Shown here piece by piece: positions 54,144-60,835 of a stretch of DNA of 64,000 nt. Source of the DNA: Sphingorhabdus sp. Alg239-R122 (lineage in GTDB: Bacteria; Pseudomonadota; Alphaproteobacteria; Sphingomonadales; Sphingomonadaceae); assembly GCF_900537065.1 (NCBI RefSeq), contig NZ_UNRC01000003.1:124001-188000 (forward strand). Direction: 5' to 3'. Each line of letters starts with the position of its first letter. Position 1 is the first letter of the stretch. The notes below the pieces were generated by a model, which made no database searches, was not told where the DNA came from, and was given only the letters and a program-made list of their open reading frames with translations. Position numbers and translations under genes: made by a program.

Positions 54144-56592
<2,449 letters not shown>

Positions 56593-56615
56593 TCATCCAG
56601 GTCACGAATAAATGA

Positions 56616-56649
56616 CAAGGTCCGCCAGTAATATTACTGGCGGACCTTG
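56616..56649. terminator. 34-bp perfect palindrome between katG and the HTH gene
   Basis: CAAGGTCCGCCAGTAAT is followed directly by its exact reverse complement. The hairpin lies 24 bases after the katG stop and 34 before the end of the convergent HTH gene, so it can act both ways. There is no long T run, but the stem is very strong. Confidence 0.75.
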
Positions 56650-56682
56650 CCTTGCGATATATGCCGCATTTGTGATGAAAGT

Positions 56683-57168
56683 TTAATTTTTACGCGAGCT
56701 CATAAACTTTTGAAATTGCTGCTGTTCCCATTTTCCGTTGAACACTGAAAATAGACCGAATATCACAAGCGCGTGTAGTGCAATTGCAAAAGCCCAAGCC
56801 AAGCCCACAATTATGACCCAGAGAAAGTCAGGGCTGAGTTTGATGTTCAAAATGTAAAGGCACGGCATCAAGATGATAAAGACAATCCAATTCATATGGA
56901 ATGCCTTTAAATTCTGCACATAGGTTATGGCCTCTTTTTCGGTCTTTTGCGTGTCAATTTGATTGGCTATAGATGTATTCGTCATGGTTTGCTCCTGTAT
57001 CAGTTCGCTGACGCTGGTTTCAAAAACAGCAGCTAGGCATTTTAGAGATTCCAGACTCGCATGATTCCCGTTCTCGATACGCTGGATTGTGCGCACGCTT
57101 AGGCCGGAATGCAGGGCTAGGTCTTCTTGTGACCACCCGCTATCAAGACGTCGTTTTTGAATACTCAT
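56683..57168 (-). CDS. XRE-type HTH protein with C-terminal 2TM domain
   Basis: The ATG at 57168 gives 161 residues. IQKRRLDSGWSQEDLALHSGLSVRTIQRIENG is an XRE helix-turn-helix, with a short linker. Two membrane helices follow (MNWIVFIILMPCLYILNI and FLWVIIVGLAWAFAIALHALVIFGLFSVF, in form). HTH+2TM proteins are membrane-bound regulators, often self-regulating. It may control the peptide genes upstream on the same strand or stand alone. AAGGT precedes the start. Confidence 0.85.
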   Translation of the reverse strand: MSIQKRRLDSGWSQEDLALHSGLSVRTIQRIENGNHASLESLKCLAAVFETSVSELIQEQTMTNTSIANQIDTQKTEKEAITYVQNLKAFHMNWIVFIILMPCLYILNIKLSPDFLWVIIVGLAWAFAIALHALVIFGLFSVFNGKWEQQQFQKFMSSRKN

Positions 57169-57489
57169 CGGTTTTACCTTTCTGTGCTGGTGCAAACCTT
57201 ATGACTTTTGGAGCGTGCGCCTACCACGACACGAAGGCGACATTAACCCGTCACCGGCATGACTCTAGTGGGATAGTATCAGGTTTCAAGAATGCAAAAA
57301 ACCCGGTTCACATTGCTGTGTTCCGGACTTTTTGTTTCAACTCGCCAGCGGTTTTCATACGAACTACGGCCCGTATCCTGGATTGGCATCGTTTAACCAT
57401 GGTGCCGCCGATATTGGTACGCCGTCTATATATGTACAGAAATAATAGACTGATAGCTGGCGTATTTCAGGTTTTCTGCTTCAGGTGCA
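57169..57489. other. Gene-free stretch between the HTH gene and the peptide gene
   Basis: About 320 bases with no convincing frame on either strand. A 30-codon minus frame starting at 57398 reads MVKRCQSRIRAVVRMKTAGE and could be a worn fragment of a mobile-element protein, but I cannot name it. The peptide transcript probably ends here, though no clear terminator is visible. Confidence 0.4.
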
Positions 57490-57711
57490 TTATTCGGTTA
57501 TCGTAATGATAGCTGATGATGCTGCAGAGCCATTGAACCATCTTTTGCCGTCTGTCAGGTCCAAATGCAGGCCAAAGTCAGCTATTGTCGCATCATCATC
57601 GACATCGACACCCTGCTCTTTGAGCAAGTTCAAAAAACTGCTCATGAACGTTACTCTGGCGGTTGGGCTTGTTTCCAATTTTGTACGCAATATTTTCCGT
57701 GATCTAGACAT
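57490..57711 (-). CDS. Putative RiPP precursor peptide (73 residues, YydF-like core)
   Basis: The ATG at 57711 has AGGAG six bases ahead; a longer frame from 57738 overlaps the radical SAM gene and lacks a better site. The peptide has a basic start (MSRSRKILRTKL), an amphipathic leader-like helix (FMSSFLNLLKEQG) and an acidic link (VDVDDDATIADFG). The end is KRWFNGS plus AASSAIITITE. RWFNGS at residues 57-62 resembles the RWILGSGH end I recall for B. subtilis YydF. It is 17 bases behind the YydG-like gene. Peptide status and modification are inferred. Confidence 0.62.
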   Translation of the reverse strand: MSRSRKILRTKLETSPTARVTFMSSFLNLLKEQGVDVDDDATIADFGLHLDLTDGKRWFNGSAASSAIITITE

Positions 57712-57728
57712 TTTTCTCTCCTGTGTAA

Positions 57729-58805
57729 TCAGCTGCATTCAACCAACATGTTCTCGAAGAAGGCAGCAGCATTCTCCTTCCCAAGAATCTGGTCAACCTT
57801 GTCCATTGATTTCAAGATTTCCTGTGTACGATAAAGATCAAAAACCTTGTAAACCCTCTGCGCGATATCATCTTTTTTAAAGATGGCATTGCATGCACTG
57901 CAAGCTCCTGGATATTCATCGAATTTTGGCATTCTGGCAAATAGCTCAGGATCAAGTCGTTTGATTATCTTGTAGAGTTCAGGAAAACCTTCGCGTTTGA
58001 TAACCCGGAACAGGAGCGAGGCCTCAACCCGTGTTCTGATCGCCGAAAGGCCTTCTTCAAATGCATTGCCGACAACGAGCCCTGGTGTTGCTCGATTAAA
58101 TGTCGAGCAACAAGGATAGGTTTTCCCATCCCAAAAAACTACTAGATCATGATATACTCTGCGGTAACATGTCTTCACTTTATCTGTGGCGGCTGCACCA
58201 TAATTAACGTCCCATTTGGTAGCGCGGCCCACTTTCGCAACGATCTTGTCTACCAGATGGACATTATTGACTTCGGTCAGATCAGGCACAAAATTCTTTA
58301 GGGTATCTTCCGGGTTTGTGAAAGTTCCTACAATATAAACAGGGATGCCAGTTGCGGCGACCAATTTGGCTGCGGTGCTAACCGCTTCAGGCGTAACAAA
58401 CTCTGCATGGGAGGGATCGCAGCTTATATTGAGGCGGCGTAAGCCAGTTGCTTTCAAATGAGCTGCAGTTATTTTTGCCTGTGCAGAGTCCGCCCCCCAA
58501 AAACCAGATGTTGCAACAGTGTAGGGAATGGCATGCAGCGCAGCTCGATCGGTCATCTTAAGGAACTCGTCCAGGTAATATAATGGTTCACCGCCAGTGA
58601 AACCTATCGATGAAAAGCAGTCCAGTTCAGCAACCTGATCGATAAGCCGTAAAGCTTCTGCGAGAGGCATTTTCTCTTTACGTTTAGGATTGCAGCCATA
58701 GCAGCAAAAATCGCAGCTAAGCGGACATGTCATGGTAGTATTAAGTACCAAAACGTCTTTTTCTTGTACGTCAGACCATTCGCGCAAATCATCGAATTCA
58801 GACAA
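57729..58805 (-). CDS. Radical SAM peptide-modifying enzyme, YydG (epipeptide epimerase)-like
   Basis: The 358-residue protein binds its cluster with Cys27, Cys31 and Cys34 (CPLSCDFCCYGCNP) and has GFTGGEPLYYLDEF. It shares with recalled YydG the SCDxCC arrangement, a SGFWG segment, GKTYPCCS (Cys232-Cys233, where YydG has its hydrogen-donor Cys), SLLFRVIKREGF and a C-terminal CSACNAIF. YydG turns L-residues of YydF into D-residues. The gene heads a two-gene unit with the 73-residue peptide. It has lower GC than its neighbours and an AT-rich leader. No YydHIJ protease or transporter is near. Confidence 0.8.
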   Translation of the reverse strand: MSEFDDLREWSDVQEKDVLVLNTTMTCPLSCDFCCYGCNPKRKEKMPLAEALRLIDQVAELDCFSSIGFTGGEPLYYLDEFLKMTDRAALHAIPYTVATSGFWGADSAQAKITAAHLKATGLRRLNISCDPSHAEFVTPEAVSTAAKLVAATGIPVYIVGTFTNPEDTLKNFVPDLTEVNNVHLVDKIVAKVGRATKWDVNYGAAATDKVKTCYRRVYHDLVVFWDGKTYPCCSTFNRATPGLVVGNAFEEGLSAIRTRVEASLLFRVIKREGFPELYKIIKRLDPELFARMPKFDEYPGACSACNAIFKKDDIAQRVYKVFDLYRTQEILKSMDKVDQILGKENAAAFFENMLVECS

Positions 58806-59072
58806 GGTAATTCTCCTGACTAAATTAATTTTAATATGCGACCTGAATGATTTTCTTTATAATTTAAGTTATGTCATGCATAACATAATCCTTATTAATC
58901 GTATTTTTACATAACATTTAATTAAAAATTTTTAATGTTATTTAAAAATAGAATAATACTTCATGCTATGTGAATATTTATCTATGTAATGAAATTTAAA
59001 TAACTACTTTATAATCATAACTGTTATTTTACAGAGAATAGTGAATAACAAGTTCAAGAGGCGTTGGTTAGT
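58806..59072 (-). promoter_or_regulatory. Very AT-rich upstream region of the peptide operon with CATAAC repeats
   Basis: CATAACAT occurs at 58879-58886 and 58910-58917. GTTATG-TCATG-CATAAC is an inverted pair near 58868-58884, and ATAACATT/AATGTTAT forms a second (58911-58941). AGGAGAATTACC lies just ahead of the radical SAM ATG on the minus strand. The base composition breaks sharply from both flanks. No gene is seen here. It is probably the promoter and operator array of the peptide genes and marks transferred DNA. Confidence 0.55.
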
Positions 59073-59223
59073 TCACTGCCCTCGATAATGGCGGCCATGG
59101 GCTGCCAAGATGTCAAGATCACCATCCACGTCGGCCAATTCGACATCGACAGTGTAGTTTTTCGCCGTATCAAAGGTCAAAAACGGGTGCGGTTTGAAAT
59201 CGGGCATTTGCGCGGCTGCCATG
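59073..59223 (-). pseudogene. Fragment of an FG-GAP/VCBS repeat protein
   Basis: The last 50 or so codons of a minus frame read PHPFLTFDTAKNYTVDVELA, then DVDGDLDILAAHGRHYRG. This resembles one FG-GAP calcium-binding repeat (DxDGDGDLDIV) with two residues lost. It stops at 59073, where the AT-rich island begins. No signal peptide or further repeats are present. I read it as a remnant of a larger secreted protein broken by the island. Confidence 0.45.
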
Positions 59224-59422
59224 GTTGATTTTGCGGCACCGGTAATCGCATATTTCCAAATACCCATCTGTACCCCCACGCATCTTAATGCGTGTAAAGA
59301 AGATAAACCGTGTATGCATGTCTTGTCCATGGCATATGTACCAAAGAATGAAGCGTGACAAAGCAAAGCCCCGGTCTGCAAGAATGCAAACCGAGGCCTT
59401 TCAATATTAGGTAATGCCGTGC

Positions 59423-60835
59423 TTACGACGAATAATACATATCGAATTCAACCGGTGATGGCGTTGTTTCCAACCGACTGACTTCTTCCCATTTCAGTTC
59501 GAGATAGGCATCGATCTGATCTTTTGTGAATACATCACCTTTGAGCAGAAATTCATGATCGGCTTCGAGTGCTTCAAGAGCTTCACGGAGAGAACCGCAT
59601 ACAGTCGGTACTTCGGCCAGCTCAGCAGGCGGCAGATCATACAGGTTTTTGTCCATTGCCTCGCCCGGATGAATCTTGTTCTGGATACCGTCCAGCCCGG
59701 CCATCAGCAATGCGGCGCAGGAAAGATAGGGGTTAGCCAGCGGATCAGGGAAGCGGAATTCGACACGCTTGGCCTTTTCACCGCTGCCATAGGGAATGCG
59801 GCAAGAGGCCGAGCGGTTGCGGCTCGAATAGGCGAGCAGCACCGGTGCTTCGAAACCTGGAACGAGGCGCTTATAGCTGTTGGTCGCGGGGTTGGTGAAC
59901 GCGTTACATGCCTTGGCATGCTTGATCACGCCGCCAATGTAATGCAGCGCCATATCGGACAGGCCGGCATAGCCATTGCCTGCAAATAGAGGCTTGCTGC
60001 CGTTCCAGATCGACATATGTGTATGCATACCGCTGCCGTTGTCATCTTTGATAGGCTTAGGCATGAAAGTCGCGGTTTTACCGTAAGCATGGGCGACTTG
60101 ATGCACTACATATTTGTACACCTGAATACGGTCGGCGGTCTCAACCAGTGTGCCGAATGTCAGGCCGAGTTCATGCTGCGCCGCGGCGACTTCGTGATGA
60201 TGCTTGTCCATCGGCAGGCCCATTTCCATCATGGTCGCAACCATCTCACCGCGAATATCAACGGCGCTGTCAACAGGCGCGACCGGGAAATATCCACCCT
60301 TGGCGCGCGGGCGGTGGCCCATATTGCCGGTCGGATACTCGGTAGCCGTGTTGGTCGGCAGCTCTATATCGTCAAGCTGAAAGCCCGACCCCGCATAGCC
60401 ATCTTCGATGCGGACATCGTCGAACATAAAGAATTCAGGTTCAGGGCCAACATAGACTGTATCACCAATCCCGGTGGATTTGAGATAGGCCTCTGCACGT
60501 TTTGCGGTGGAACGCGGGTCGCGCGCGTAAAGCTGTCCGGTTCCAGGTTCGACAATGTCGCAAAACAGGATAAGCATTGGCGTTGCAGAAAACGGGTCCA
60601 TATAGGCCGCATCCAGGTCAGGGCGCAGGATCATGTCGGATTCGTTAATCGCTTTCCAGCCTGCGATGGAGGATCCATCGAACATCAGGCCATCTTCCAG
60701 CGCGTCTTCGTCAATGGCATCCGCGCACATAGATAGATGCTGCCACTTGCCGCGCGGGTCGGTGAAACGGACATCGACCCATTCAATGTCATTTTCCTTG
60801 ATCAAGTCTACTATGTCTGCTGGCGATTTGCCCAT
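59423..60835 (-). CDS. glnA: Glutamine synthetase type I
   Basis: The 470-residue protein has [37 protein letters not shown] (ATP/glutamate site), [18 protein letters not shown] and [12 protein letters not shown]. The last carries the Tyr adenylylated by GlnE. It makes glutamine from glutamate and ammonia. It follows the PII gene on the same strand after 63 bases, the usual glnBA order. Confidence 0.97.

What the first reader, a model, noticed from the sequence alone, without database searches (positions are those of the whole stretch)
57490..59072. Epipeptide-like two-gene radical SAM peptide system in an alphaproteobacterial AT-rich island
A radical SAM enzyme with YydG-type features (SCDxCC, SGFWG, YPCCS, late CxxC) is followed 17 bases later by a 73-residue peptide with a leader-like helix and a RWFNGS segment close to the RWILGS of YydF. 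YydFG systems are known to me only from Gram-positive bacteria, with YydHIJ. Here protease and transporter are missing, the peptide has an extra AASSAIITITE tail, and the enzyme gene comes first. This would be a new branch of the family. The resemblance rests on recalled YydF and YydG sequences.
Basis: partly seen in the sequence, partly recalled or inferred. Interest (0 to 1): 0.93.

Follow-up and report, generated by a model that had tools for sequence, protein, structure and literature searches.

The report
Gram-negative two-gene peptide epimerase system
A small inserted gene pair codes for an enzyme that probably flips amino acids in its partner peptide to the mirror-image form, a distant cousin of a Bacillus antimicrobial-peptide system that we found no report of in bacteria of this kind.

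Summary
The gene pair is real: a 358-aa radical SAM/SPASM enzyme (57729-58805, -) and, 17 bases downstream, a 73-aa peptide (57490-57711, -). The same pair occurs in three Sphingobium genomes (68% and 66% identity) and, diverged, on two Allochromatium plasmids. The enzyme's nearest characterised relative is EpeE/YydG; the Cys and Asp mutated in the EpeE crystal-structure set are kept (C233, D220). It scores 103 bits on the YydG model against a cut-off of 300 and forms its own clade. The peptide is not a YydF by profile. RWFNGS has a weak match to YydF, but its Arg is Ala in Sphingobium and the segment is absent in Allochromatium. The pair lies on a 2.8-kb low-GC insert between katG and glnA, absent from both congeners searched. 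No ABC transporter or peptidase gene was found beside it. Best reading: a two-gene RiPP system making D-residues, most likely in the Ile tail. The chemistry is inferred, not shown. A new variant of the epipeptide kind.

The parts
57729..58805 (-). Radical SAM/SPASM enzyme, 358 aa, TTG start; predicted peptide epimerase of the wider EpeE/YydG superfamily
57490..57711 (-). Precursor peptide, 73 aa, 17 bases after the enzyme gene
   Evidence: AGGAG before the ATG
57499..57519 (-). Conserved C-terminal motif SSAIITI (residues 65-71), predicted core and main epimerisation site
   Evidence: Shared with Sphingobium (STNIITI) and Allochromatium (STSIITI, STSIVTI); 6 of 1646 ORFs, all six beside clade enzymes
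57526..57540 (-). WFNGS (residues 58-62), weak match to the YydF W[IV]xGS segment; second candidate site (F59)
57574..57711 (-). Leader region (about residues 1-46; boundary inferred), predicted helices 3-14, 16-32, 40-45
   Evidence: pLDDT about 62-80 here; weak profile match to leaders of two other proteobacterial YydG-like loci
58704..58727 (-). CPLSCDFC, radical SAM CxxxCxxC motif (C27, C31, C34)
58107..58109 (-). Cys233, aligned with EpeE Cys223 (proposed H-atom donor)
   Evidence: role from passages of PMC8326336 and PMC5682303
58146..58148 (-). Asp220, aligned with EpeE Asp210
   Evidence: 8ai6 is the D210A mutant
57891..57902 (-). C302xxC305, late SPASM cysteines
56595..59422 (.). Inserted low-GC island between katG and glnA
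56683..57195 (-). HTH_3 + 2TM domain gene on the same island; a link to the pair is unproven

Best explanation
A horizontally acquired two-gene RiPP system. The precursor's leader (about residues 1-46) and the conserved GLHLDLTDGK stretch position the C-terminus in the radical SAM/SPASM enzyme. The enzyme cleaves SAM at its CxxxCxxC cluster, the 5'-deoxyadenosyl radical removes the C-alpha hydrogen of a beta-branched or hydrophobic residue, most likely Ile68, Ile69 or Ile71 of the SSAIITI tail (Phe59 a second candidate), and Cys233 returns a hydrogen from the other face, leaving a D-residue; the SPASM cluster helps to reset the cysteine. Shown here: the pair, its conservation and linkage, the empty site in two congeners, kinship of the enzyme with EpeE, conservation of the two residues. 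Inferred: horizontal origin (from the empty sites and GC), that the enzyme acts on this peptide, that the reaction is epimerisation, which residues change, that the leader is removed and the product exported by unlinked housekeeping systems (if at all), and an antibacterial or signalling use.
For: Nearest family TIGR04078 YydG epimerase, nearly full length, E 1.5e-29, 103 bits against 39.5 for the next model; Sphingobium homologue 115 bits. Closest solved structures are EpeE; the nine best Foldseek hits of the (poor) model are all EpeE chains. EpeE D210 and C223 positions are D220 and C233 here and are kept in the 5 relatives of the clade examined; EpeE has D and two Macrococcus YydGs E at the first position, whereas the four rows of another subclade (L018, L022, L023, L024) have N. 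The adjacent peptide is conserved with mostly synonymous change in Sphingobium. The tail motif is found in 6 of 1646 ORFs of at least 40 aa from the window and 20 of the loci then held, all six beside clade enzymes, including Allochromatium whose enzyme is only 31% identical. YydG is reported to epimerise Val and Ile (passage).
Against: No biochemical data. The enzyme scores a third of the YydG cut-off, and weak TIGR04078 matches (E up to 1e-5) also ring in 5 of 14 control genomes, so a match below cut-off is not specific by itself. The relation of its clade to YydG is unresolved in the tree. The first SPASM Cys is spaced differently from EpeE (CYRRVYHD against CPGYD). No peptidase, ABC exporter or immunity gene was recognised beside the pair in the window or in Sphingobium. 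The Allochromatium precursor match is strong only in the tail (E 0.013), and the Allochromatium peptides change as often at non-synonymous as at synonymous codons (7 and 7). Related SPASM enzymes do other chemistry on peptides.
Confidence: 0.67

Rival explanations
1. The enzyme forms a crosslink or other C-alpha/side-chain modification (as other SPASM maturases do) on the same peptide, not an epimer.
For: SPASM peptide maturases form C-C, C-O or thioether bonds (passages of PMC8326336); W and F at 58-59 could be crosslinked. The peptide has no Cys, so a thioether is excluded in the window and Sphingobium forms.
Against: Among the 25 models shown of 49 matched, no crosslinking maturase exceeds 29.4 bits (PqqE) against 103 for TIGR04078; the EpeE H-donor Cys and Asp are kept; the Trp-Phe pair is absent in Allochromatium.
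Confidence: 0.17
2. True YydF-type epipeptide: the core is the RWFNGS region, and the tail is trimmed.
For: Profile match of LTDGKRWFNGSA with YydF (E 0.0033, 1 of 200 shuffles as good), no weaker than the matches that I use for the tail and leader.
Against: No TIGR04077 hit; Arg becomes Ala in Sphingobium; segment absent in Allochromatium while the tail is kept; Phe at the epimerised Ile place.
Confidence: 0.11
3. The small ORF is not a RiPP precursor but a regulatory or stabilising partner of the enzyme, with another substrate.
For: The leader is conserved too; no export genes beside it.
Against: The tail is disordered in the model (pLDDT under 50 for 52-73), yet it is the part shared across the clade; no Pfam or NCBIfam family hit that would suggest a partner domain. 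A peptide-binding (RRE) fold was not tested.
Confidence: 0.05

Closest known systems
EpeE/YydG-EpeX/YydF epipeptide system (Bacillus subtilis; Macrococcus plasmids L019, L068)
   Same: SPASM radical SAM enzyme with EpeE D210/C223 counterparts, double-Cys YPCCS, late CxxC, S-x-D-x-x-H; small leader-core peptide next to it; weak W..GS match in the peptide
   Different: 25% identity to a Macrococcus YydG; TIGR04078 103 bits against 431; peptide not TIGR04077; enzyme gene first; S[ST]xI[IV]TI tail; no peptidase or ABC transporter gene beside it; proteobacterial hosts
Allochromatium plasmid pair (L016, L017), annotated only as radical SAM/SPASM and hypothetical proteins
   Same: Same enzyme clade (98/95 support); 61-aa peptide ending CSTSI[IV]TIVY
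   Different: Peptide upstream, with a 190-aa protein between; 31% enzyme identity; near type III CRISPR-associated genes
Other proteobacterial YydG-like radical SAM systems with V/A- or S/A-rich precursors (L018, L023, L024)
   Same: YydG-like enzyme (98 bits for L023), CC motif; weak leader resemblance for L023/L024 (E 0.0042)
   Different: Putative precursors of 160-193 aa with repetitive stretches; N in place of D220; separate clade
Proteusin epimerases (PoyD, OspD)
   Same: Radical SAM C-alpha epimerisation using an enzyme Cys
   Different: One cluster plus an RRE, nitrile-hydratase-like leaders (literature only, passages of PMC8326336; not tested here)

Membership tests
YydG/EpeE epimerase (TIGR04078) | Score above the curated cut-off (300 bits) | tested here: not met
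   103 bits, best family of all; Macrococcus YydG 431 bits
YydG/EpeE epimerase (TIGR04078) | Counterparts of Cys223 and Asp210 | tested here: met
   C233, D220
YydG/EpeE epimerase (TIGR04078) | Falls within the YydG clade | tested here: inconclusive
   Own clade; backbone between subclades unresolved; only two YydG rows in the tree, both of unusual composition
YydG/EpeE epimerase (TIGR04078) | Peptide epimerase activity | not testable with these tools
   Needs biochemistry
YydF/EpeX epipeptide (TIGR04077) | Profile match (cut-off 35 bits) | tested here: not met
   No match at E up to 1 (window peptide) or 10 (Sphingobium L030 peptide); controls 75-76 bits
YydF/EpeX epipeptide (TIGR04077) | R-W-[IV]-x-G-S core segment | tested here: inconclusive
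   RWFNGS aligns, E 0.0033, but AWFDGS in Sphingobium and nothing in Allochromatium
epeXEPAB operon | Linked peptidase and ABC transporter genes | tested here: not met
   Window 44-64 kb: none by inspection and none in a Pfam scan of 8 neighbours (it shows Omp85/TamB 5-11 kb away). Sphingobium L067: none in a Pfam scan of 9 neighbours; an MFS and a nucleoside transporter lie about 4.3 and 5.7 kb from the peptide gene. Present in Macrococcus
Radical SAM/SPASM protein | CxxxCxxC and SPASM domain | tested here: met
   PF04055 45.2 bits, PF13186 27.6 bits, both above cut-off

The most novel reading that the evidence does not exclude
A Gram-negative lineage of SPASM peptide epimerases with its own precursor family, whose core is a C-terminal S[ST]xI[IV]TI tail, working as a stripped two-gene unit without dedicated protease, exporter or immunity gene, so that the product either acts inside the cell or borrows host transport.
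Probability: 0.45. Interest if true: 0.68.

Novelty: new variant of a known kind. Interest (0 to 1): 0.55.

Why it matters
Passages seen here place the epeXEPAB epipeptide locus in Firmicutes. A related enzyme-peptide pair in Sphingobium, its relatives and purple sulfur bacteria would widen the family, show which peptide part these SPASM enzymes really keep, and give a two-gene system that is easy to rebuild in E. coli. It also raises the question of what a D-amino-acid peptide does when no recognisable export or immunity gene travels with it.

Tried and rejected
Viral and phage origin: no relative in three related-loci scans of viral contigs, no stretch in a pattern scan and no match in the phage collection. 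The HTH-2TM gene as a system part: homologues in 5 of the other 58 relatives; none of these 5 has a close relative of the enzyme, though G055 has a distant YydG-like enzyme on another contig. A known RNA element: none at gathering threshold. Promoter scan: 8 sites against 6.1 expected, uninformative. Peptide homologues in 199 genomes of the family: only the window's own is credible; 14 others at E 0.04-0.1 are short matches in open frames of 190 to 1239 aa and were dismissed as noise. Peptide search in plasmids: nothing credible for the window peptide; for the Allochromatium peptide only the two Allochromatium records. Structure of the enzyme: mean pLDDT 56.7 with 3 sequences, so used only as weak support. 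Leader as a known leader family: no Pfam or NCBIfam hit; only the pairwise match, and the Allochromatium peptides do not match that leader set (E 0.58). More holders by a search of the class of one distant holder: 4 of 48 genomes, all four of the other subclades. Tree: of 32 collected enzymes two (L045_7465, L007_871) were left out before building; L005 and L013 gave no ORF meeting the motif filter. A first neighbour listing dropped ORFs that lie under longer antisense frames, the enzyme gene of L067 among them; it was therefore redone without that filter for L067 and checked by Pfam.

Full report
What is there. On the minus strand, window 57729-58805 codes for a 358-aa protein and 57490-57711 for a 73-aa peptide, with 17 bases between. 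Pfam finds Radical_SAM (45.2 bits) and SPASM (27.6 bits), both above cut-off. The best NCBIfam model is TIGR04078, YydG peptide epimerase: E 1.5e-29, 103.4 bits, residues 19-320 over model 3-303 of 309, but below its cut-off of 300; the next model has 39.5 bits. A true YydG from Macrococcus scores 431. Weak TIGR04078 matches (E up to 1e-5) ring in 5 of 14 control genomes, over the cut-off in one, so the family name alone proves little. In the PDB the best relatives are EpeE/YydG (8ai1 E 3.2e-17). In that alignment C233 falls on the second Cys of YPCCS and D220 on the Asp that is Ala in 8ai6, whose title names D210A; with the numbering offset this makes them EpeE Cys223 and Asp210. Cys223 is the proposed H-atom donor (passages of PMC8326336 and PMC5682303; PMC5808125, prints Cys 233 for YydG, apparently a slip).

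Where it is found. Among 59 relatives only the window's own genome has a close match; the others are weak radical SAM matches, E 2e-13 or worse. At E 1e-8 it was 1 of 385 genomes of the class, the own one. With clade alignments, 4 of 396 genomes of the order matched at E 1e-12, 7 of 398 of the phylum at E 1e-15 and 4 of 48 in the class of one distant holder at E 1e-20; by score only the own genome is of this clade. A degenerate DNA pattern for FTGGE plus CDPxH, run once over genome contigs (84,980 species), hit 10 stretches: three Sphingobium genomes with the enzyme, one Phycisphaerae enzyme of a different make (CDPFH, no double Cys) and six with no ORF of at least 100 aa that carries the motif. 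The pattern demands a TTC Phe codon and the CDPxH motif, so it undercounts. The plasmid collection gave 12 records with a match, two of them Allochromatium at 30% identity.

The peptide. In the three Sphingobium genomes a 75-aa peptide follows the enzyme gene at the same place, 66% identical for the two in the alignment; codon changes among the Sphingobium copies are mostly synonymous. In Allochromatium, upstream of the enzyme and a 190-aa protein, lies a 61-aa peptide, which changes at 7 synonymous and 7 non-synonymous codons between the two species, only one of the latter in the last 20 residues. Window ...GSAASSAIITITE, Sphingobium ...GSVASTNIITINH and Allochromatium ...ELACSTSI[IV]TIVY share S[ST]xI[IV]TI two residues from the stop. 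Of 1646 ORFs of at least 40 aa in the window and 20 of the loci then held, six carry this motif within the last 14 residues, and all six are these peptides. hhalign extends the match to LxxxLTxG (the His of LHxxLTxG only in A. tepidum), E 0.013, 0 of 200 column shuffles as good.

The YydF likeness. The window peptide and one Sphingobium peptide get no hit to TIGR04077, against 75-76 bits for two Macrococcus YydFs. Yet hhalign aligns LTDGKRWFNGSA with KSDKNRW[VI]AGSA (E 0.0033; 1 of 200 shuffles as good). Against it: Arg is Ala in Sphingobium, and Allochromatium has no such segment. Taking TIGR04077 positions as B. subtilis numbering (inferred from the offset of two), Phe59 stands where YydF has the epimerised Ile44. 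The leader resembles weakly the leaders of two other proteobacterial YydG-like loci, L023 and L024 (E 0.0042, 0 of 200 shuffles), while the Allochromatium peptides do not (E 0.58). With such tiny profiles none of these matches is firm.

Family tree. In a maximum-likelihood tree of 30 radical SAM proteins the window, three Sphingobium and two Allochromatium enzymes form a clade (98/95); two Macrococcus YydGs and the enzymes of the S/A- and V/A-rich precursor systems form separate groups, and the order among them is open. Only two true YydGs were at hand, with unusual composition, and the program warned of long branches.

Setting. In both congeners held (G001, G002) katG and glnA stand side by side with 77 and 88 bases between the aligned stretches; in the window 2.8 kb sits there (56595-59422), with 43.6% GC against 53.9%. 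No direct repeat of 14 bases or more was found in 56590-59430. The island also holds an HTH-2TM gene with homologues in 5 of 58 other relatives. In Sphingobium L030/L067 the pair sits at another place, between a TypA/BipA and a TelA gene. A Pfam scan of 8 neighbours in the window (44.9-64 kb; katG and glnA named by inspection) shows no ABC transporter or peptidase, but Omp85 and TamB genes 5-11 kb away; a scan of 9 neighbours in L067 shows none either, but an MFS and a nucleoside transporter about 4.3 and 5.7 kb from the peptide gene. A general exporter elsewhere in either genome was not looked for.

Reading. The most likely function is C-alpha epimerisation of one or more Ile in the peptide's tail by the EpeE mechanism. 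Shown: pair, linkage, conservation, kinship, catalytic residues. Inferred: substrate relation, chemistry, sites, processing, export, biological role. The searches for earlier reports were made; in their listings, and in the passages read, I saw nothing on this clade, and passages place epeXEPAB in Firmicutes. No paper was read whole; subscription journals and preprints are mostly not in that library.

Noticed in passing
L044 6483-9567 (own genome, contig C1, about 200.5-203.6 kb): A second, separate locus in the same genome: two tandem YydG-like radical SAM genes (51.7 and 46.3 bits on TIGR04078), a haem-oxygenase-like protein and a 76-aa peptide with an aroma-sacti domain match (28.4 bits, cut-off 30).
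   Followed up: partly
L045 (G004, contig C1, 1.49-1.50 Mb) and L003: A relative carries three YydG-like radical SAM genes in a row near a dehydroquinate-synthase-like, a methyltransferase-like and an efflux-like gene (names by inspection); a fourth enzyme lies about 30 kb away.
   Followed up: no
L018, L023-L026: YydG-like enzymes of other genomes beside 160-262-aa proteins (354 aa and downstream in L025) with V/A- or S/A-rich stretches, looking like a further class of precursors.
   Followed up: partly
L016 3460-4032, L017 3460-4032: A conserved 190-aa protein without Pfam or NCBIfam match between the Allochromatium peptide and enzyme genes, near type III CRISPR-associated genes.
   Followed up: no
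window 56616-56649: A perfect 17-bp inverted repeat without spacer between the converging katG and HTH-2TM genes, terminator-like on the minus strand.
   Followed up: no
L031 3377-4390: Phycisphaerae radical SAM protein with CYYNCNP and SCDPFH motifs but no double Cys.
   Followed up: no
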